Shown piece after piece: positions 32,873-42,053 of a stretch of 64,000 bases of DNA (its first letter is position 1; every line of letters begins with the position of its first letter). Origin of the DNA: Rhodanobacter sp. (GTDB lineage: Bacteria > Pseudomonadota > Gammaproteobacteria > Xanthomonadales > Rhodanobacteraceae); NCBI GenBank assembly GCA_027450005.1, contig DAIDKO010000096.1, forward strand, positions 1-64,000. The letters run 5' to 3'. The position numbers were made by a program, and so were the translations under genes. Below the pieces are notes generated by a model that was not told the DNA's origin, ran no database searches, and saw nothing but the letters and a program-made list of their open reading frames with translations.

Positions 32873-34078
32873 TCAGCCGGAAATCGCCAGCCGCTCCGAG
32901 CGGTACATCTGCACCGTGACGCCGATCGCGACCGCTGCCGCCGACAGCGTGCCAGCGAGGCACAGCCCAAGCTGCGCGGCGCCGACGCCGTCGCCGCGCA
33001 GCTGCCGCATGATGCCGAGGTTCTGGCCCAGCAGTGGCACCGCATACATCCAGGCCCGCGCCTTGATCGGCAGGAAGGCCAGCAAGGCGCTCGGGATCAG
33101 CGGCACCATCATCAGCAGCGAAACGTAGGTCTGCGCCTCACGGTAGCTCTTGGCGAACGCCGCGACCAGGGTCTGCAGCGAAGCCAGCAGCAGCACCAGC
33201 GGCAGCATCAGCAAGAGGACGATGCCAGCGAAGCGCCAGCCCAGGTCCAGCTCCATGCCCAGCTTCTCGGCAGGAATCAGGTGCCCCACCACCGCGAATG
33301 CGAGCAGGGTGATCGCGAGGCTGGCCAGCGAGAACAGGCAGATCGCCGCGAGCTTGCCGAACAGGATCTTCCATCGCGCCACCGGGTTGGCGAACAGCGG
33401 CTCCAGCGACTGCCGCTCGCGCTCGCCGGCGGTGAGGTCGATGGCGAGGTACATGCCGCCCATGAAGAGGGTGATCACGAAGAAGTACGGCAGGATCGCA
33501 AACAGCAGTGCCGCGCGCGACTGCGGAGTAGCCTGATCTCGCTTGGCCACCTGCACCGGCCAGGCCGTACCCGGCGACAGGCCGCGCGCCACCAGCCGCA
33601 TCGCGCCCTGCTGCCGGGCGTAGGCCTCCACCAGCTTCTGCACGCGCTCCACCGCGCTGCTGGTGTCTTGCCGCGAGGAGTCGTAGAACATCTCCACCTG
33701 CACCGGCTCGCCCTGGCGCCAGGCCTTGCCGTAGCCGGCGCCGATGCGCAGCACCACGTCGGCATCCTGCTTGCGCACTGCCGTGCCGGGGTCGGCCACC
33801 GGCGCGTCAGGCACGATGCCTCCTTCCTCCAGCGCATCGAGCAGATGGGGTGCATACTGCGCGCCGATTACCGGTACGTGCAATGGCTTGTCGGCCTTGT
33901 CTAACTGCTGGTTGATCTGCACGTTGACCAGCATGACGAACAGCAGCGGCCCCAGCAGCGGACCGGTAAAGAATGCGCTTAGCAAGGTGCGGCGGTCACG
34001 CAGGTTTTCGCGTACTTCCTTGAGGAACACGGTGAACGCGGCGCTGCGGCGAAGGTTTTTCGTGATGACGGCGTTCAT
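32873..34078 (-). CDS. ABC-2 type transporter permease, NatB-like
   Basis: Membrane subunit of an exporter, 401 residues. It has an N-terminal helix after the cytoplasmic FTVFLKEVRENLRDRRTLLSA and a large extracytoplasmic domain of about residues 60-180. Five or so helices follow, with the GERERQSLEPLFANPVARWKILFGKLAAI coupling region characteristic of NatB/ABC-2 permeases. It overlaps the ATPase by four bases (ATGA). Last gene of the six-gene operon. NatAB in Bacillus exports sodium; the substrate here is unknown. Confidence 0.93.
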   Translation of the reverse strand: MNAVITKNLRRSAAFTVFLKEVRENLRDRRTLLSAFFTGPLLGPLLFVMLVNVQINQQLDKADKPLHVPVIGAQYAPHLLDALEEGGIVPDAPVADPGTAVRKQDADVVLRIGAGYGKAWRQGEPVQVEMFYDSSRQDTSSAVERVQKLVEAYARQQGAMRLVARGLSPGTAWPVQVAKRDQATPQSRAALLFAILPYFFVITLFMGGMYLAIDLTAGERERQSLEPLFANPVARWKILFGKLAAICLFSLASLAITLLAFAVVGHLIPAEKLGMELDLGWRFAGIVLLLMLPLVLLLASLQTLVAAFAKSYREAQTYVSLLMMVPLIPSALLAFLPIKARAWMYAVPLLGQNLGIMRQLRGDGVGAAQLGLCLAGTLSAAAVAIGVTVQMYRSERLAISG

Positions 34079-34809
34079 GCGGCAAGTCCCTCGTCGGTTC
34101 CGATGACTTTCACGAACGCCTCCTCCAGGTTGGCCTCGCCGGTTTGCACGCGCAGCGCGTCGGGTGTTGCGTCGGCCACCACGCGGCCGTGTGCGATCAC
34201 CACGATGCGGTCACACAGCGCCGCCACCTCCTGCATGATGTGGCTGGAGAACAGCACGCAGCGACCCTCCGCCTTCAACTGTTGCATGAAGCGCCGCAGG
34301 CCACGCGTAGCCATCACGTCGAGTCCGTTGGTGGGCTCGTCCAGGATCACGTTGCGCGGATCGTGGATCAGCGCGCGGGCGATGGCGGTCTTCACGCGCT
34401 GGCCCTGCGAGAAACCTTCGGTCCGGCGATCGAGGATGTCGCGCATCTCCAGCGCATCGACCAGCGCGTCGTGCCGGGCCCACAGCATGGCTTCGTCGAG
34501 GCCATGCAGGCGCGCGAAGTATTCGATGTTCTCGCGCGCGGTGAGCCGCTTGTATAGGCCGCGCGCGTCCGGCAGTACCCCCAGCGCACGACGGACGCTG
34601 AGCGGATCGGTGGCGGCATCCACGCCATCCACCAGCACTTGGCCGCAGTCGGGTTTCATCAAGGTGTAGAGCATGCGCAGCGTGGTGGTCTTACCTGCCC
34701 CGTTGGGACCGAGCAGGCCGGTGATTTCGCCGTCGCGCGCGCTGAAACCGACGCCGTCCACCGCCTTCACTGCGCCGAAGGCCTTATGCAGGTTCCTGAC
34801 TTCGATCAC
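34075..34809 (-). CDS. ABC transporter ATP-binding protein, NatA-like
   Basis: ATPase subunit of 244 residues: Walker A GLLGPNGAGKTTTLRML, Q-loop followed by GVLPDARGLYKRLTARENIEYFARLHGL, signature FSQGQRVKTAIARALI (variant of LSGGQ), Walker B NVILDEPTNGLD and the switch His in LFSSHIMQEV. It starts at GTG 34809 (VIEVRNLHKAFG); the ORF-track line begins far upstream in a non-coding frame. Its GTG shares four bases with the stop of the 57-residue ORF upstream, and its end overlaps the permease start. Confidence 0.94.
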   Translation of the reverse strand: MIEVRNLHKAFGAVKAVDGVGFSARDGEITGLLGPNGAGKTTTLRMLYTLMKPDCGQVLVDGVDAATDPLSVRRALGVLPDARGLYKRLTARENIEYFARLHGLDEAMLWARHDALVDALEMRDILDRRTEGFSQGQRVKTAIARALIHDPRNVILDEPTNGLDVMATRGLRRFMQQLKAEGRCVLFSSHIMQEVAALCDRIVVIAHGRVVADATPDALRVQTGEANLEEAFVKVIGTDEGLAA

Positions 34810-34979
34810 GGCAGGCCACTCCAGTTGAGGCACATCCCATGGCCGACTACGCACATCGACAACATGGCCAGCAGCACCAGCACAATCACGGCGAGCACGT
34901 GCGGCGGCGCGGGCGCGGCCGCCGCAAGCAGCACGGCTGCCCATGGCATCGGCTTTGCCAGCAGGTAAGGCCTGTTCAT
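34806..34979 (-). CDS. 57-residue membrane peptide in NatAB operon
   Basis: Too short for the ORF track. Its ATG at 34979 overlaps the upstream hydrolase stop (ATGA) and its TGA overlaps the natA GTG (GTGA), so both ends are fitted exactly into the operon. The product begins MNRPYLLAKPMPWAAVLL and has a hydrophobic helix VLAVIVLVLLAMLSMCVVG, then a short tail HGMCLNWSGLP with two Cys in total. It could be a small subunit of the ABC transporter, a regulatory peptide or an exported substrate. None of these is shown by sequence alone. Coding is supported mainly by the overlap pattern. Confidence 0.7.
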   Translation of the reverse strand: MNRPYLLAKPMPWAAVLLAAAAPAPPHVLAVIVLVLLAMLSMCVVGHGMCLNWSGLP

Positions 34980-36547
34980 GGCGTGGCTCCGTTGAAGTCG
35001 ATGAAGAAGGGCGTGTCGTGGAGGCGGTCGAGGCAGCTCGCATCCATGGTTTTCGGGTCGAGCTTTTCGACGAAGTGCTGCACCAGTTGCGGCCCGCATC
35101 CTGCCGATAGCACGCCGTGGCCCTGGCCCTTGAACACCAGCACCCGCGCGTCCGGCAGGTATTTCGCCACTTCCTCGGCATAGCGCGGGGGCGTGACCGG
35201 ATCGTACTGGCCGGCCAGCAAAAGCACGGGCTTGTCGATCTTCAGCGGCTGACGGAAGTCCGCGGGACGGGTACCCTTCGGCCATGCGGAACAGATCGCC
35301 TTGTAAGCGTCGATCATGTGCGTGCCGAGCAGGGTACCGGCGTCCTGCGGGCGCGCGGTAAGCAGGTCGGCGTCCTCGCTGCAGATCACCGAATAGGACA
35401 TGCCACTGCCGGCAAGGTCGGCCATGTCCACGGTGAGCAGCTTCGCCTGCCCGAGCAACGGTCCGACGTCGCCATGCGCAGCCGCGTCGATGGACAGCGG
35501 CAGCAGGGCGGCCGTGACCGGCGAATAGGCGAACATCCGCACCACGCCGACCAGCGAATCTTCGCTGAGCACGCGCTGCACCGTGCGGTAGCTTTGCGGG
35601 TCGCGGAAGCTGACCGGATGCGGGTTCGCGCGCAACGCATCGCGCAGCTGGATCAAGGTCTGGTACGGATTGCCGAAGCGCTGCTTGCAGGCCGCATCGG
35701 CGTCGCAACGCGCGAACTGGGCTTTCAGCGCATCATCGAGGTTCTGCGCGAAGTCCTCGCCCAGTACGACGTCGTTCGGCACCGTGCTGTCCAGCACGAT
35801 GCTGCGTACCGCGTCGGGGTAGCGCATCGCGTATTGCTGTGCCACGCGCGTGCCGTAGGAGACGCCGACCAGGTCGAACTGCGGCACGCCCAGCGCCTTA
35901 CGTACGTCGTCCAGGTCCTGCACCGCGTCGGTGGTGGTGTAGTAGCGCGGATCAGCATGCGACTGCACCTGCTTCAGGCAGTCGGCGGCCGCGGCGCGCA
36001 GCTTGGCCGGGTCGAAGCCGGTGTCATCGTCCGCCGAGGCCTTACCCCCGGCCTTGCAGTCCAGCGCATTCGACCCACCAACACCGCGCTGGTCGACCAG
36101 CAGGATGTCGCGATGGGCGCGCAGCGGCGCCAGCATGGCGCCGATCTGGCCGGCATACTCAGTGGCCGCCTGCCCCGGGCCGCCGGCGAGGAAGGCGAGC
36201 ATGTCCGGCCTGGCCACCTGCGCGCCGGAACGCAGTACCGCGAGCTTCAACGGGATCTTGCGGCCCTGCGGATCGGCGCGGTTCTCCGGCACGGTCAACG
36301 AGCCGCACCACGCCGCCGTGCTCAGGCCGCTATTCGGCTGGCCAAGTTCGCAGGCGGTGAGCGTTAGCCTACCCAGCCGCCAGGTGCGCGCAGGCGCGGG
36401 CTTCACACGGACCGGTGCGGAGGCCCCGCTTCGCGCCGGCGCCGTTGGCTGGTGACGAGGCGACGGCCGCCCTGCGAGGGTCGCTGCGATGACCGCTGCG
36501 GTCAGCGCAACGATCATGCCCATGCGCTTCCTCCGTTTCATGCTCAT
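34976..36547 (-). CDS. Exported alpha/beta hydrolase, TAP-like aminopeptidase
   Basis: Protein of 523 residues with an N-terminal signal/anchor (MIVALTAAVIAATLAG) and a Pro/Ala-rich spacer. The hydrolase contains FLAGGPGQAATEY (oxyanion region), DILLVDQRGVGGS, nucleophile LVGVSYGTRVAQQYA, a TAP-like C-terminal domain with LLLAGQYDPVTPP (acid) and FKGQGHGV (His). Similar to Streptomyces tripeptidyl aminopeptidases and proline iminopeptidases. Seven or more Cys suggest disulphides and a periplasmic location. It overlaps the XRE gene upstream and the 57-residue ORF downstream by four bases each. Confidence 0.9.
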   Translation of the reverse strand: MSMKRRKRMGMIVALTAAVIAATLAGRPSPRHQPTAPARSGASAPVRVKPAPARTWRLGRLTLTACELGQPNSGLSTAAWCGSLTVPENRADPQGRKIPLKLAVLRSGAQVARPDMLAFLAGGPGQAATEYAGQIGAMLAPLRAHRDILLVDQRGVGGSNALDCKAGGKASADDDTGFDPAKLRAAAADCLKQVQSHADPRYYTTTDAVQDLDDVRKALGVPQFDLVGVSYGTRVAQQYAMRYPDAVRSIVLDSTVPNDVVLGEDFAQNLDDALKAQFARCDADAACKQRFGNPYQTLIQLRDALRANPHPVSFRDPQSYRTVQRVLSEDSLVGVVRMFAYSPVTAALLPLSIDAAAHGDVGPLLGQAKLLTVDMADLAGSGMSYSVICSEDADLLTARPQDAGTLLGTHMIDAYKAICSAWPKGTRPADFRQPLKIDKPVLLLAGQYDPVTPPRYAEEVAKYLPDARVLVFKGQGHGVLSAGCGPQLVQHFVEKLDPKTMDASCLDRLHDTPFFIDFNGATP

Positions 36548-36744
36548 GCATCGCCTCCTGGTTCGAAGATGGATTCGATCGGACGTCCAAACAACTTGGC
36601 GATCTTGAAGGCCAGCGGCAGGCTGGGGTCGTACTTGCCGGTCTCGATGGCGTTAATCGTCTGCCGCGACACCTCGAGCCGCTCGGCGAGGTCTGCCTGT
36701 GACCAACCCTGCCTGCTACGCAGTTCGCGCACGTGGTTGTTCAT
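36544..36744 (-). CDS. XRE-family regulator, YgzD-like
   Basis: A 66-residue one-domain repressor: helix-turn-helix MNNHVRELRSRQGWSQADLAERLEVSRQTINAIETGKYDPSLPLAFKIAKLFG, ending PIESIFEPG. This length and the RQTINAIETGKYDPSL segment mark the small stand-alone type that usually pairs with a membrane protein gene, as here. Its stop overlaps the hydrolase start (ATGA). It is the likely reader of the two palindromes at 37381 and 37427. Confidence 0.93.
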   Translation of the reverse strand: MNNHVRELRSRQGWSQADLAERLEVSRQTINAIETGKYDPSLPLAFKIAKLFGRPIESIFEPGGDA

Positions 36745-36760
36745 GCGTTGCGCCAGCCAC

Positions 36761-37363
36761 TCACGTCGCGTTCCCCGACCTGCGTCGATGAAGGATCGTC
36801 ATCAGCACGGCGCCGACCGCCAGCGATGTCGTGAGGCCGATGAGCAGACCGCGCTGCCAGTCGCTCAACACGTGCCAGCCCAGCAGCAGAATCAACCCGA
36901 ATACCGCAGCGGCGATACCTATCTGCCAGCGACGCGACAAGCCATCGTCGCAGGCCGCGATCCAATCGCCGCCGTAACGCCGAGCCGCCCAACCGCGGCC
37001 CAGCGCATGCAGCACCACCATCATCGGCCAGACGCCGAGGAGCACCGAGCCATCCAGTCGGATCACTTTGGCAGCCACCAGGAAGCCGCCGACCAGGCAC
37101 AGCGTACCCACCACCGTGCCAGCGAGGGCCAGGCCGATCAGGTTCGTGCGCTGCTCCAGTTCATAGCTGCCCATCACCAGCCGGAACATCGCGCGGGTTA
37201 CCAGCAGCACCGGCGCGACCGGCAACAGGGCCAGTGCGGCACGCGCCCACATGCTCTGCATATGCCCAACCATTGGCCAGACCAGCAGCATGATCAGGAT
37301 GCAGGCCAGCATCGGCGGCCAGAACTCGCGCGCATAGCGACGCTGGTTTGCGTTCATCGACAT
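36761..37363 (-). CDS. Multi-span membrane protein, first gene of NatAB operon
   Basis: A 200-residue protein with about six transmembrane helices (PPMLACILIMLLVWPMVG, AALALLPVAPVLLVTRAMF, GLALAGTVVGTLCLVGGFLVAA and more) and little outside them. No family recognised with confidence. ATG 37363 has GGAGAAGG upstream; the track's TTG start at 37390 is inside the operator. It lies 16 bases before the XRE gene. Membrane proteins in this position may sense a signal for the XRE regulator, which is inference. Confidence 0.85.
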   Translation of the reverse strand: MSMNANQRRYAREFWPPMLACILIMLLVWPMVGHMQSMWARAALALLPVAPVLLVTRAMFRLVMGSYELEQRTNLIGLALAGTVVGTLCLVGGFLVAAKVIRLDGSVLLGVWPMMVVLHALGRGWAARRYGGDWIAACDDGLSRRWQIGIAAAVFGLILLLGWHVLSDWQRGLLIGLTTSLAVGAVLMTILHRRRSGNAT

Positions 37364-37380: not shown

Positions 37381-37398
37381 TGTAAAGCAAACTTTACA
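37381..37398. promoter_or_regulatory. Operator 1 of NatAB operon
   Basis: Perfect inverted repeat TGTAAAGCAAACTTTACA (arms TGTAAAG/CTTTACA, four-base centre), 18-35 bases before the first ATG of the operon, probably in the 5' leader or at the transcription start. Same plan as operator 2. Confidence 0.6.
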
Positions 37399-37426
37399 TT
37401 GGAGGCTAAAACCGGAGCCCCTGGAA

Positions 37427-37444
37427 TGTCAAGTACACTTGACA
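37427..37444. promoter_or_regulatory. Operator 2 and -35 of NatAB operon
   Basis: Perfect inverted repeat TGTCAAGTACACTTGACA, same 7-4-7 plan as operator 1 and 46 bases from it. Read on the minus strand it contains TTGACA, the consensus -35 hexamer, pointing at the operon. A bound XRE dimer would therefore cover the promoter. The -10 match (TTTAGC region) is poor. Confidence 0.6.
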
Positions 37445-37929: not shown

Positions 37930-38463
37930 ATGAAAAAGACTTTGCTCTCCGCTGCCCTCGTCGCCACTCTTGGCGCGTTGTCCTTCTTGCCGGCGGCGTC
38001 CGCAGCAACCGCTCCTACGAACACTGGCACCATCCAATTCAACGGCAAGGTGTTGGCAGATACCTGCACGGTAAGCATCAACGGTTCGGGCACCACCGTG
38101 ACGCTGACGCCGGTGATGGCCACCAGCCTGGCTACTGCAGGCGCGACTGCTGGTGCGACTCCCTTCACCCTGGACCTGACCAACTGCGACACGAATGCCG
38201 CTCAGGCGACGTTGAGTTTTGCGAGCGGTTCGCACAACGCCACCGACGGCAACCTCACGAATACCGGTACTGCCGGCAACGTCGAGGTTGAATTGCTCTC
38301 GGGCAGCACCCCCATCAATGTCACCACGGCAAACGGGGGGCCTGTCGTTCAGCTTAGTAACGGCGCAGGTAGCACGAGTATGACCGCGGAGTACTACGCC
38401 ACGGGTGCAGCGACACCGGGCCTGGTCAGCACCAGCGCCAGCGTTACCTTCACCTATCAGTAA
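37930..38463 (+). CDS. Type 1 fimbrial major pilin
   Basis: Secreted structural subunit of 177 residues. Signal peptide KKTLLSAALVATLGALSFLPAASA, donor-strand region TNTGTIQFNGKVLADTCTVSI with the first conserved Cys and TNCDTNAAQATLSFASG with the second, and the C-terminal pilin strand SASVTFTYQ. GGAAAG precedes the ATG. First gene of a pilin-chaperone-usher-tip operon. Confidence 0.93.
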   Translation: MKKTLLSAALVATLGALSFLPAASAATAPTNTGTIQFNGKVLADTCTVSINGSGTTVTLTPVMATSLATAGATAGATPFTLDLTNCDTNAAQATLSFASGSHNATDGNLTNTGTAGNVEVELLSGSTPINVTTANGGPVVQLSNGAGSTSMTAEYYATGAATPGLVSTSASVTFTYQ

Positions 38464-38471
38464 GCAATACC

Positions 38472-38507
38472 GCGTGCCGTGGCGGCCCAGGGGTCGCTGC
38501 GGCACGC
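38472..38507 (+). terminator. Intercistronic hairpin after the pilin gene
   Basis: Arms GCGTGCCG/CGGCACGC with a 20-base loop, nine bases after the pilin stop. No T run follows, so it may act as a partial terminator or mRNA stabiliser that keeps pilin more abundant than chaperone and usher. Confidence 0.4.
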
Positions 38508-38550
38508 CACCGCGCGCCCTGGGGCGTCCCGTCCGGCGGGGATATTTCCG

Positions 38551-39297
38551 ATGAAAAATTTCCTCTGCACCTTCGGCGGCGCTTTGGCAGTGCTGGTCGT
38601 CGGCATCGGCATGGCGCGCGCCAGCGTGGTGGTCGGTGGCACTCGGGTGGTACTGCCTGCCCAGCAGGGAGAGGTTACCGTGCGCCTGTCCAACGAAGGC
38701 AACCATCCGGCGCTGGTCGAGGCATGGATCGACAGCGGCAACCTGAATTCGACGCCAGACACCGCACATTCGCCCTTTCTGATCACGCCGCCGCTGTTCC
38801 GCATGGAGCCGCAGAAGGACCAGAGCCTGCGAATCATTTACACCCAAGGCGCCCAGCCGCTGCCGACCGACCGCGAATCGCTGTTTTGGCTAAACGTGTT
38901 GGAAATTCCGCCCAAGCCCAGCGGGCCACAAACCGCCAGCCGCAACTACCTGCAGTTCGCGATACGCTCCCGGCTGAAGCTGTTCTATCGCCCGGGCAGC
39001 CTGCCCGGTGAAGCCATCACGGCACCCGACAAGCTGGTTTTCAAGGCTAGTCAGGGGGCGCCTGCGGCATTGATCGTTCACAATCCCACGCCGTACTACA
39101 TCACCATCAGCAAGCTTGCGCTCGGCACCGATGGGAAGCAGGTTGACGGCGCCCGCGGCATGGTGGCGCCCTTCGGTGAGCTGCGCCTTCCACTCAGCCG
39201 CATGGCGCAGCCGCCCGCGGCCGGCACCCCGCTCGGCTTCACCACCATTGACGACTACGGCGCGGCAGACGCGCACAAGGGCACCGTGGCGCAATGA
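38551..39297 (+). CDS. Fimbrial periplasmic chaperone (PapD/FimC family)
   Basis: Folds pilins by donor-strand complementation. 248 residues from ATG 38551. Signal peptide FGGALAVLVVGIGMARA, then SVVVGGTRVVLPAQQGEVTVRLSNEG, with the Arg of the subunit-binding cleft, PALVEAWID, FLITPPLFRMEP, RESLFWLNVLEIPPKP and the cleft Lys in FAIRSRLKLFYRP. The stop overlaps the usher ATG (ATGA). Confidence 0.95.
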   Translation: MKNFLCTFGGALAVLVVGIGMARASVVVGGTRVVLPAQQGEVTVRLSNEGNHPALVEAWIDSGNLNSTPDTAHSPFLITPPLFRMEPQKDQSLRIIYTQGAQPLPTDRESLFWLNVLEIPPKPSGPQTASRNYLQFAIRSRLKLFYRPGSLPGEAITAPDKLVFKASQGAPAALIVHNPTPYYITISKLALGTDGKQVDGARGMVAPFGELRLPLSRMAQPPAAGTPLGFTTIDDYGAADAHKGTVAQ

Positions 39298-42053
39298 CGC
39301 GGCTGCGCGACAGGCTCGGGCAGCTGACCGGGCGCCGCGTGGCGCTTGGGATGGCGTGTGGCTTGGCCGCGAGCGCCGCCATGGGCTGCCCGCGCACCGC
39401 CTGGGCCGATGGCGAGGCCGCATCAGCCGGCGCAAGCGCGGAAGGTAGCTTCGCCAACTTCGACCGCAGCATGCTGGCCGGCGCCGGACATGGGACAGCG
39501 GACCTTTCGCGGTTCGAGCATGGTAACCCCGTGCTGCCAGGGATCTACAACCTCGACATCTACCTAAATAAGCATTGGGTGGGTCGCATGGACGTGCGCT
39601 TTGCCGCGCCCGCTGCCAATACCAACGCGGTTCCCTGCGTCGACAGCCGCTTGCTCGACCGCATGGGCGTCGCTCCCGCCAAGACCGCCACCGCGGCAGC
39701 AGCGGCCGCAAAATTGGCATCGTCAGCCTGCATCGGCTTGGGCGACCTCATCCCGGGCGCCACGTTGACGGTCGACATGTCCAGTCTGCGCGTCAACGCC
39801 AGCATACCGCAGGCCTTCATGAACCAACGGCCGCGGGGGTGGGTGAACCCCGCTTCGTGGGACGCCGGCGTAACGTCGTTCCTTCTCAACTACAACATCA
39901 ACAGTTACCGGACTACGACCAGCGGGCGATACCTGGACAGCGCGTACCTCGGTCTGCGTGCCGGCTTCAACCTCGGCTTGTGGCAATTCCGCCAGGACAG
40001 TACCGCCTCGCAGGAATCGGGTACGAACCAGACCAGTCGGCGCCACTGGCACAACATCGACGCGTACGTGCAGCGGGCGCTTCCCGGGATACGCGCCGTA
40101 CTGAGCCTGGGCGATAGCTACACCGACGGCGCGGTTTTCGACAGTTACGGTCTGCGCGGCGCGCAACTGGCCACCGACGACCGAATGCTTCCCCAGTCAC
40201 TGCGCGGCTATGCACCCGTGGTGCATGGCATCGCCTACACCAACGCCAAGGTCACGGTCACCCAGAACGGCGTGCAGATCTACCAGACGACGGTCGCGCC
40301 CGGTCCGTTCGTGATCAATGATCTTTACCCCACCGGCTACGGCGGTGATCTGGCGGTGAACGTGACGGAGGCCGATGGTCGCAAGCATAGTTTCACCGTG
40401 CCCTACGCTTCGTTGGCGCAACTGATGCGCCCTGGCGTCACCCGTTTCGACATCGCCGTCGGCCAACTGCGCGACAGCTTTCCTCAGAGCCGTCCCGACG
40501 TAATCCAGGCCTCGTTGCAGCATGGCTTCAGCAACCGCATCAGCGGCTATGCCGGAGTGCAGGGTTCGGCGGGATACGGCGCGGCGCTGGTCGGCGCTGC
40601 ACTCAACACACCATACGGGGCGCTGGCGCTGGACATCACGCAGGCCCATGCCAGCATACCGCGCTATGGAAGTTACAACGGACAAAGCTACCGAGTCAGC
40701 TACAACAGGGTCCTTCCCGAAAGCGGTACCTCGCTGACCGTGGCTGCCGACCGCTACTCCACCAGCGGCTTCCTGAGCCTGAGTGACGCTGAAACCGCGC
40801 GCGATTTCGCCCGGCAAGGCATGAATGCCCTTCAGTATCAGCCCGCGAGCGTACTGACGATCGATGGGTTACCCGTCCAGAGCCTGCTCACGCCTGCCCA
40901 GCTTGCTGCACTGACCGGAACGGTCTACAACAGTGGTGGTCTTTACACCGCGCGCGGCCTGCTGCAACAGCGCAACCGCTTCACTCTGACGCTCAACCAG
41001 CGCTTGGGAAGCGACGGTGGCTCGCTGTACGCCAACGCCTCGGTCAGCGACTACTGGAACCATCCCGGCAATGACACACAGTTTCAAGTCGGCTACGACA
41101 ACCACCTCGGGCGACTGGCTTACAGCATCTCCGCCAGCCGCGGACGCATCGCCCTGGGCGGCTACGACAATCAGGTGTCCCTCAACGCCAGCCTGCCGCT
41201 GGGTGACACGGCACACGCTCCGAGTATCTCCTTCAACCTTGGCCACGATAGCAACAGCGGCAACCAAGCGGAGAGCACCCTCAATGGCGCGCTTGGCGAA
41301 TGGAACCAGTTCAACTATGGCGCCACGGCCTCGCACACCGGCAACGGCACCGGCAATGCCTACGACGTGAACGTCGGCTACAACAGCCGCTATGCCGTAT
41401 TTGACGCCAGTGCCGGCGGCGGCCGTGGCTACTCGCAGGCATCCGTCGGTGCCAGCGGTGCGGTGGTCGCCCATCCCGGCGGCATCACTTTCGGTCAGCC
41501 GACCGGTGACACCGTCGCCATCGTGCACATGCCCGGCGCTACGGGCGCCCACATCCTCAATGCCCCCGGCCTGAGCGTGGACCGCCACGGCTATGCGCTG
41601 GTGCCTTACTTGACGCCCTACCAGCGCGATACCATCGAGGTCGACCCGCAAGGCCTGCCGCTGGGCGTGCAGTTGGCAGCCACCAGCGCCGACGTCGCGC
41701 CCTATGCCGGTGCGACAGTGATGGTGAACTTCAAGAGTACGTCAGGTCGGGCCGTGATCGTACGCATCCGCCTTGCGGACGGCCAGCCCCCTCCTTTCGG
41801 CGCGCAGGTGTTCGACGCAAAATACCGGCCGCTCGGCGTGGTCGGCCAGGGCGGCCTGTCACTGCTGCGGGGCGTTGGGGCCAACGGGAAGCTCAGCGTC
41901 CAGTGGGACGATGACCGCGGCGCGGCGCATACCTGCGGATTCACCTATGCTTTGCCGGCAATCGGTCGATCTTCTGCGGCGTATCAGCAGATGCAGGCGA
42001 CATGCGCTCACGAAAGCGCCGCGTCGCCGTCACAGAAGGAAAACCGCACATGA
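39294..42053 (+). CDS. Outer-membrane fimbrial usher
   Basis: Assembly platform and secretion pore for the fimbria, 919 residues. It contains a signal peptide, an N-terminal chaperone-binding domain (FDRSMLAGAGHGTADLSRFEHGNPVLPGIYNLDIYLN), a 24-strand barrel with SLGDSYTDGAVFDSYGLRGAQLATDDRMLPQSLRGYAPVVHG, the plug region VTVTQNGVQIYQTTVAPGPFVINDLYPTGYGGDL, and C-terminal domains ending with DDRGAAHTCGFTYALP. Start and stop both share four bases (ATGA) with neighbours. Confidence 0.96.
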   Translation: MTRLRDRLGQLTGRRVALGMACGLAASAAMGCPRTAWADGEAASAGASAEGSFANFDRSMLAGAGHGTADLSRFEHGNPVLPGIYNLDIYLNKHWVGRMDVRFAAPAANTNAVPCVDSRLLDRMGVAPAKTATAAAAAAKLASSACIGLGDLIPGATLTVDMSSLRVNASIPQAFMNQRPRGWVNPASWDAGVTSFLLNYNINSYRTTTSGRYLDSAYLGLRAGFNLGLWQFRQDSTASQESGTNQTSRRHWHNIDAYVQRALPGIRAVLSLGDSYTDGAVFDSYGLRGAQLATDDRMLPQSLRGYAPVVHGIAYTNAKVTVTQNGVQIYQTTVAPGPFVINDLYPTGYGGDLAVNVTEADGRKHSFTVPYASLAQLMRPGVTRFDIAVGQLRDSFPQSRPDVIQASLQHGFSNRISGYAGVQGSAGYGAALVGAALNTPYGALALDITQAHASIPRYGSYNGQSYRVSYNRVLPESGTSLTVAADRYSTSGFLSLSDAETARDFARQGMNALQYQPASVLTIDGLPVQSLLTPAQLAALTGTVYNSGGLYTARGLLQQRNRFTLTLNQRLGSDGGSLYANASVSDYWNHPGNDTQFQVGYDNHLGRLAYSISASRGRIALGGYDNQVSLNASLPLGDTAHAPSISFNLGHDSNSGNQAESTLNGALGEWNQFNYGATASHTGNGTGNAYDVNVGYNSRYAVFDASAGGGRGYSQASVGASGAVVAHPGGITFGQPTGDTVAIVHMPGATGAHILNAPGLSVDRHGYALVPYLTPYQRDTIEVDPQGLPLGVQLAATSADVAPYAGATVMVNFKSTSGRAVIVRIRLADGQPPPFGAQVFDAKYRPLGVVGQGGLSLLRGVGANGKLSVQWDDDRGAAHTCGFTYALPAIGRSSAAYQQMQATCAHESAASPSQKENRT

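What the first reader, a model, noticed from the sequence alone, without database searches (positions are those of the whole stretch)
32873..37363. Six-gene coupled operon: membrane protein, XRE, TAP-like hydrolase, 57-residue peptide, NatAB
Five successive genes, 36744 to 32873, are joined by four-base ATGA/GTGA overlaps, and the first gene sits only 16 bases ahead. Such packing suggests near-equimolar products acting together. An exported peptidase, a tiny membrane peptide and an ABC exporter under a dedicated repressor could form a peptide export/processing, immunity or detoxification unit. The function is inferred; the parts and overlaps are read directly.
Basis: partly seen in the sequence, partly recalled or inferred. 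Interest (0 to 1): 0.72.

Follow-up and report, generated by a model that had tools for sequence, protein, structure and literature searches.

The report
Switch-controlled exporter with tethered peptidase
This soil bacterium carries a conserved set of genes that pairs a membrane exporter with an enzyme anchored outside the inner membrane, controlled by a small repressor and an undescribed membrane protein through two nearly invariant DNA sites; the pairing and its switch are widespread but their job is still unknown.

Summary
The six ORFs and their junctions are real (four 4-base overlaps, one 16-base gap), in a Rhodanobacter-type genome. Comparison with relatives splits the unit into three layers. 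(1) The core is a membrane-tethered TAP-like serine hydrolase plus NatA and NatB. It is far older than the rest: in 185 class-wide genomes the same 8 hold both hydrolase and NatB, side by side in each, and in 299 phylum-wide genomes 15 of 15 hydrolase-positive genomes have NatA-NatB adjacent. (2) In Xanthomonadales this core is mostly led by a regulatory pair: a membrane protein without a Pfam family and a 66-residue repressor related to the cytolysin repressor CylR2. The first palindrome contains the -35 box (43/43). The pair with its operators also occurs alone elsewhere, so it is a portable switch. (3) The 57-residue peptide is genuine but recent and dispensable: most close relatives have it; other genera mostly lack it. 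Best reading: a repressed, membrane-signal-inducible envelope exporter/peptidase, probably for detoxification. Substrate and inducer are not shown.

The parts
37427..37444 (-). Operator 1, TGTCAAGTGTACTTGACA; its right half holds the -35 box TTGACA
   Evidence: conserved at this place in 43 distinct promoters; unique in own genome together with operator 2
37403..37408 (-). Probable -10 element (TAGCCT, 18 bases after TTGACA)
   Evidence: TAnnnT at spacing 17 or 18 from TTGACA in 34 of 43 promoters
37381..37398 (-). Operator 2, TGTAAAGTTTGCTTTACA, over the expected transcription start
   Evidence: start-to-start distance from operator 1 is 46 bp here, 42-47 in all
36761..37363 (-). MEM: six-helix membrane protein, no Pfam/NCBIfam family; proposed sensor partner of XRE
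   Evidence: pairs with XRE in other families too
36544..36744 (-). XRE: 66-aa HTH_3 repressor, CylR2-like
34976..36547 (-). HYD: membrane-tethered TAP-like alpha/beta serine hydrolase; triad S230/D449/H477, 10 invariant Cys
34806..34979 (-). PEP: 57-aa two-helix membrane peptide, lineage-restricted
34075..34809 (-). NatA: ABC ATPase, GTG start
32873..34078 (-). NatB: ABC-2 permease with large extracytoplasmic loop between helices 1 and 2

Best explanation
An inducible envelope exporter/peptidase operon. XRE dimers bind two palindromes that cover the -35 box and the transcription start, silencing the whole operon including their own gene. MEM, a multi-helix inner-membrane protein, is the partner that perceives an envelope or extracellular signal and relieves repression, much as CylR1 is thought to do for CylR2. 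Derepression makes NatAB, an ABC exporter with an extracytoplasmic domain, and HYD, a serine peptidase held on the periplasmic face beside it. The most likely job is to remove and cleave a harmful peptide or peptide-like compound. PEP, where present, is most likely a small membrane accessory of NatAB. Shown: gene content, conserved linkage, operators, catalytic residues, tethering signals. Inferred: repression, sensing by MEM, peptidase activity, detoxification, role of PEP.
For: Linkage: the same 8 of 185 class-wide genomes carry both HYD (E<=1e-50) and NatB (E<=1e-40), adjacent in each; 15 of 15 HYD-positive genomes of 299 in the phylum sample have NatA-NatB next door. Regulation: strict double operator in 43 distinct promoters of XRE-positive loci, none in the 9 XRE-less loci with full upstream coverage, none elsewhere in 520 kb, none for the reversed motif; TTGACA in 43/43; single expected sites in the own genome 0.007, found exactly these two. 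The double operator plus MEM-XRE occurs without HYD-NatAB in an AT-rich genome of another family, again 44 bp apart (L166), which ties the sites to MEM-XRE. XRE matches CylR2 over residues 3-61, E 1.2e-13; the CylR1/CylR2 model is in PMC3709268. HYD has an invariant triad and Cys set, an N-terminal helix here and a lipobox-like cysteine in Lysobacter/Xanthomonas forms, and its fold neighbours are TnmK1/K2 and Hip1. NatAB-type exporters carry large extracellular domains (PMC11466899).
Against: No experiment, no known inducer or substrate. MEM was not compared with CylR1 by sequence; it has six predicted helices against three reported for CylR1, and its fold matched nothing solved. The core also exists without MEM-XRE, so this kind of control is not needed for its function. 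PADLOC lists a TAP-like candidate defence protein, but that alone says little about the substrate.
Confidence: 0.6

Rival explanations
1. Maturation rather than detoxification: NatAB exports a self-made peptide or lipid-linked product and the tethered hydrolase trims it outside, with MEM-XRE as a quorum-type feedback loop on that product.
For: Exporter plus extracytoplasmic peptidase plus CylR1/R2-like regulators matches the logic of the cytolysin locus. Some loci add a second exported alpha/beta hydrolase as first gene.
Against: No precursor peptide or modification enzyme is conserved in the operon; the only small ORF is a two-helix hydrophobic peptide absent from most loci. The core is conserved across many families without any linked precursor seen.
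Confidence: 0.2
2. Sodium or general envelope homeostasis: NatAB extrudes Na+ or helps the membrane under stress, and HYD is a housekeeping envelope peptidase that happens to be co-transcribed.
For: NatAB of Bacillus subtilis is annotated as sodium export (PMC11466899).
Against: HYD and NatB co-occur in exactly the same genomes and always adjacent, too tight for chance co-transcription; similarity is to a broad ABC-2 family, not a sodium-specific one.
Confidence: 0.15
3. The 57-residue ORF is a secreted bacteriocin or signal and the rest its immunity/export system.
For: Small, fast-evolving ORF between protease and exporter; the window copy differs from its sister far more than the neighbours do (pN 0.246 against 0.015 for HYD).
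Against: No leader or double-glycine signature seen; two hydrophobic helices with basic ends in relatives suggest a resident membrane peptide; absent from most operons that keep everything else.
Confidence: 0.05

Closest known systems
CylR1/CylR2 regulatory pair of the Enterococcus faecalis cytolysin locus
   Same: A 66-aa HTH repressor of the same sequence family encoded beside a multi-helix membrane protein; no phosphorelay
   Different: MEM has six predicted helices (CylR1 three, PMC3709268); genes lead the operon they control instead of being divergent; no lantibiotic genes; two operators with a fixed spacing
Hip1/CaeA and TnmK1/TnmK2 TAP-like serine hydrolases
   Same: Fold and full-length alignment (TM 0.61-0.65 by query), serine triad
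   Different: About 20% identical; tethered by a helix here; always beside NatAB
NatAB-type ABC exporters (Bacillus subtilis NatAB; related architecture LnrLMN)
   Same: ABC ATPase plus ABC-2 permease with a large extracytoplasmic domain
   Different: Constant neighbour of a TAP-like hydrolase; substrate unknown
NF041647 ABC permease/CPBP protease fusions
   Same: NatB matches the permease half, 240 bits
   Different: No CPBP protease domain; the hydrolase is a separate, unrelated protein

Membership tests
CylR1/CylR2-type pair | 66-aa repressor homologous to CylR2 | tested here: met
   phmmer E 1.2e-13, residues 3-61
CylR1/CylR2-type pair | Adjacent membrane protein | tested here: met
   MEM, six helices; kept beside XRE in other families
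CylR1/CylR2-type pair | Membrane protein homologous to CylR1 | not tested
   CylR1 sequence was not fetched; no Pfam family for MEM
CylR1/CylR2-type pair | Controls a lantibiotic operon, divergent arrangement | tested here: not met
   No lantibiotic genes; same-strand arrangement
TAP-like (S33-type) serine hydrolase | Abhydrolase_1 and TAP-like C-terminal domains above cut-off | tested here: met
   89.5 bits vs 25.8; 64.6 bits vs 21
TAP-like (S33-type) serine hydrolase | Ser-Asp-His triad | tested here: met
   S230, D449, H477 invariant
NatAB-type exporter | ABC ATPase plus ABC-2 permease with large extracytoplasmic loop | tested here: met
   PF00005, PF12698; helices 33-51 and 189-207
NatAB-type exporter | Sodium export | not testable with these tools
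   Needs transport assay
ABC permease/CPBP fusion (NF041647) | C-terminal CPBP protease domain; score above 435 bits | tested here: not met
   240 bits, only positions 3-397 of 636

The most novel reading that the evidence does not exclude
MEM-XRE with its double operator is a portable membrane-to-promoter switch without phosphorelay, a Gram-negative counterpart of CylR1/CylR2, that has been attached to an ancient exporter-peptidase pair in Xanthomonadales, to an exported alpha/beta hydrolase elsewhere, and also stands alone.
Probability: 0.45. Interest if true: 0.7.

Novelty: new variant of a known kind. Interest (0 to 1): 0.55.

Why it matters
How CylR1 passes an outside signal to CylR2 is stated to be unresolved (PMC3709268). 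Here is a large, easily aligned set of operons with a like repressor, a membrane partner with no described family and a near-invariant pair of operators, in tractable soil bacteria. The tight HYD-NatAB linkage also predicts a joint function for an exporter and an outside hydrolase whose substrate can be looked for by deletion and chemical screens.

Tried and rejected
Peptide as conserved sixth member: rejected, lineage-restricted. Peptide as a chance ORF: rejected. Operator shared by a wide regulon: rejected for the own genome, only these two sites; only 1 of 274 class genomes carries the commonest form of the double site. MEM as a known family: no hit above a curated cut-off in Pfam for the window protein and homologues; sub-threshold hits are scattered over unrelated families, and no fold match. 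Defence system: HYD hits a TAP-like PADLOC candidate and the XRE and ATPase hit generic models; not enough to claim. Literature searches for NatAB with this hydrolase or for the regulatory pair outside lantibiotics found nothing in the open library, which is a limited library; a search for TnmK1/TnmK2 papers found none. The cytolysin locus was not fetched for comparison because it is a toxin locus; the paper on the CylR2 operator is not held.

Full report
Observation. All six ORFs, the 16-base gap and the four 4-base overlaps are as described. The genome is a Rhodanobacter-type draft: its nearest named relatives by the hydrolase are a metagenome bin at 97% and Rhodanobacter isolates at 83-86%. 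Four-base overlaps are ordinary in bacteria (general knowledge), and relatives show that these particular junctions come and go, so they do not by themselves argue for equal amounts of product.

What the parts are. The first gene (MEM) codes for a membrane protein with six predicted helices; AlphaFold gives the same helices (mean pLDDT 85), and neither Pfam, NCBIfam nor a fold search against solved structures names it. A core of about 130 residues is shared by all copies, and some operons carry two copies. The XRE protein is a bare HTH_3 domain whose closest solved relatives are a PbsX-family regulator (9k3w, E 2e-22) and CylR2 (E 1e-13). The hydrolase is TAP-like (PF00561, PF08386), with Ser230, Asp449 and His477 and ten cysteines invariant in nine aligned relatives; TnmK1/K2 and Hip1 are its nearest folds. 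It begins with a hydrophobic helix here and with a lipobox-like cysteine in Lysobacter and Xanthomonas forms, so tethering to the membrane seems to be kept while the means differ. NatA and NatB are an ABC ATPase and an ABC-2 permease with about 140 residues between helices 1 and 2, the layout described for NatAB-type exporters (PMC11466899).

Layer 1, the core. In 185 genomes spread over the class, the hydrolase (E<=1e-50) and NatB (E<=1e-40) were found in exactly the same 8 genomes and next to each other in each. If genomes were independent, such a coincidence would have a probability near 3e-14; they are not fully independent (three of the eight are of the same order), but five come from other families. 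In 299 genomes of the phylum, all 15 with the hydrolase had NatA-NatB adjacent, one of them in another class. NatB relatives without the hydrolase are only weak matches. Hydrolase and exporter therefore very probably act together.

Layer 2, the switch. The promoter holds two perfect palindromes, TGTCAAGTGTACTTGACA and TGTAAAGTTTGCTTTACA. With up to two mismatches they are the only such places in the 2.9-Mb draft; about 0.007 strict matches would be expected. Over 64 distinct loci, the strict double site occurs in 43, always ahead of the regulated operon and 42-47 bp apart; XRE-positive loci without it are those whose fetched sequence ends too soon, plus L028 and L042, which have one strict site and one with a single-base variant. 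None of the 9 XRE-less loci with full upstream coverage has it, and there was none in 520 kb of other sequence. In 43 of 43 the right half of site 1 ends in TTGACA, and a TAnnnT follows at 17-18 bases in 34, so site 1 covers the -35 box and site 2 the start. This is the layout of a repressor. The pair is portable: double operator-MEM-XRE stands alone in a genome of another family with low GC (L166: sites 44 bp apart, MEM and XRE overlapping by four bases), and in another genome the operators precede an exported alpha/beta hydrolase whose likely continuation on a separate contig is followed by MEM and XRE (L128, L165; that the two contigs join is inferred). The same extra hydrolase is the first gene of six operons found here in full.

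Layer 3, the peptide. The 57-codon ORF is present at 56-58 codons in 14 aligned loci and damaged at its end in one more (L050), nearly all of genus g1 or close to it; it is missing in all Dyella, Stenotrophomonas, Thermomonas, Lysobacter, Pseudoxanthomonas and Xanthomonas loci named in the collection search. It is coding (fixed length, pN below pS) but evolves fast: median pN/pS 0.68, against 0.40 for HYD, 0.21 for NatA and 0.14 for XRE. Two hydrophobic stretches and basic ends in most copies suggest a hairpin in the inner membrane. A small accessory of NatAB is the simplest reading, at modest confidence.

Mechanism. Shown: linkage, operators, catalytic residues, tethering signals. Inferred from the layout and from CylR2: repression by XRE. 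Inferred from the pairing and from CylR1: sensing by MEM. Inferred from fold neighbours and exporter type: removal and cleavage of a peptide-like compound. The CylR1/R2 mechanism itself is not settled in the source used.

Membership and novelty. The parts belong to known families except MEM. The regulatory pair works like CylR1/CylR2 as far as anatomy tells, but is not filed as a member because homology of MEM to CylR1 was not tested and the cargo and gene arrangement differ. The hydrolase-NatAB module and the double-operator switch were not found described in the open library, which is incomplete. I rate it a new variant of a known kind.

Noticed in passing
window 37930-42053, + strand: Divergent neighbour is a chaperone-usher-like fimbrial cluster (secreted subunit-like ORF, periplasmic chaperone-like ORF, 919-aa usher-like ORF), read from the translations only.
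   Followed up: no
window 34806-34979 and loci L033, L035, L039, L041: The peptide's sequence types do not follow the hydrolase relationships: the L033 copy, and less clearly the window copy, resemble L035/L039/L041 rather than L005/L006/L037; and the window copy is strikingly diverged from its sister. Could be exchange or diversifying selection.
   Followed up: partly
L057 and L031, about 5863-7449 in L057: In Dyella silvatica the hydrolase frame is interrupted by a TAG stop while NatA-NatB stay intact.
   Followed up: no
L043, 5189-5857: Frateuria sp. Soil773 has about 660 bases between XRE and the hydrolase, possibly an extra gene that was not identified.
   Followed up: no
L063, L065, L067, L070, L074, L078: XRE-less loci keep hydrolase-NatA-NatB just downstream of a conserved oxidoreductase-like ORF (ferredoxin reductase-like by eye), perhaps the ancestral place.
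   Followed up: partly
L037:4046-4990, L048:3948-4910: Some operons start with a second exported alpha/beta hydrolase (Abhydrolase_6/1); the window's own genome lacks a close copy.
   Followed up: partly
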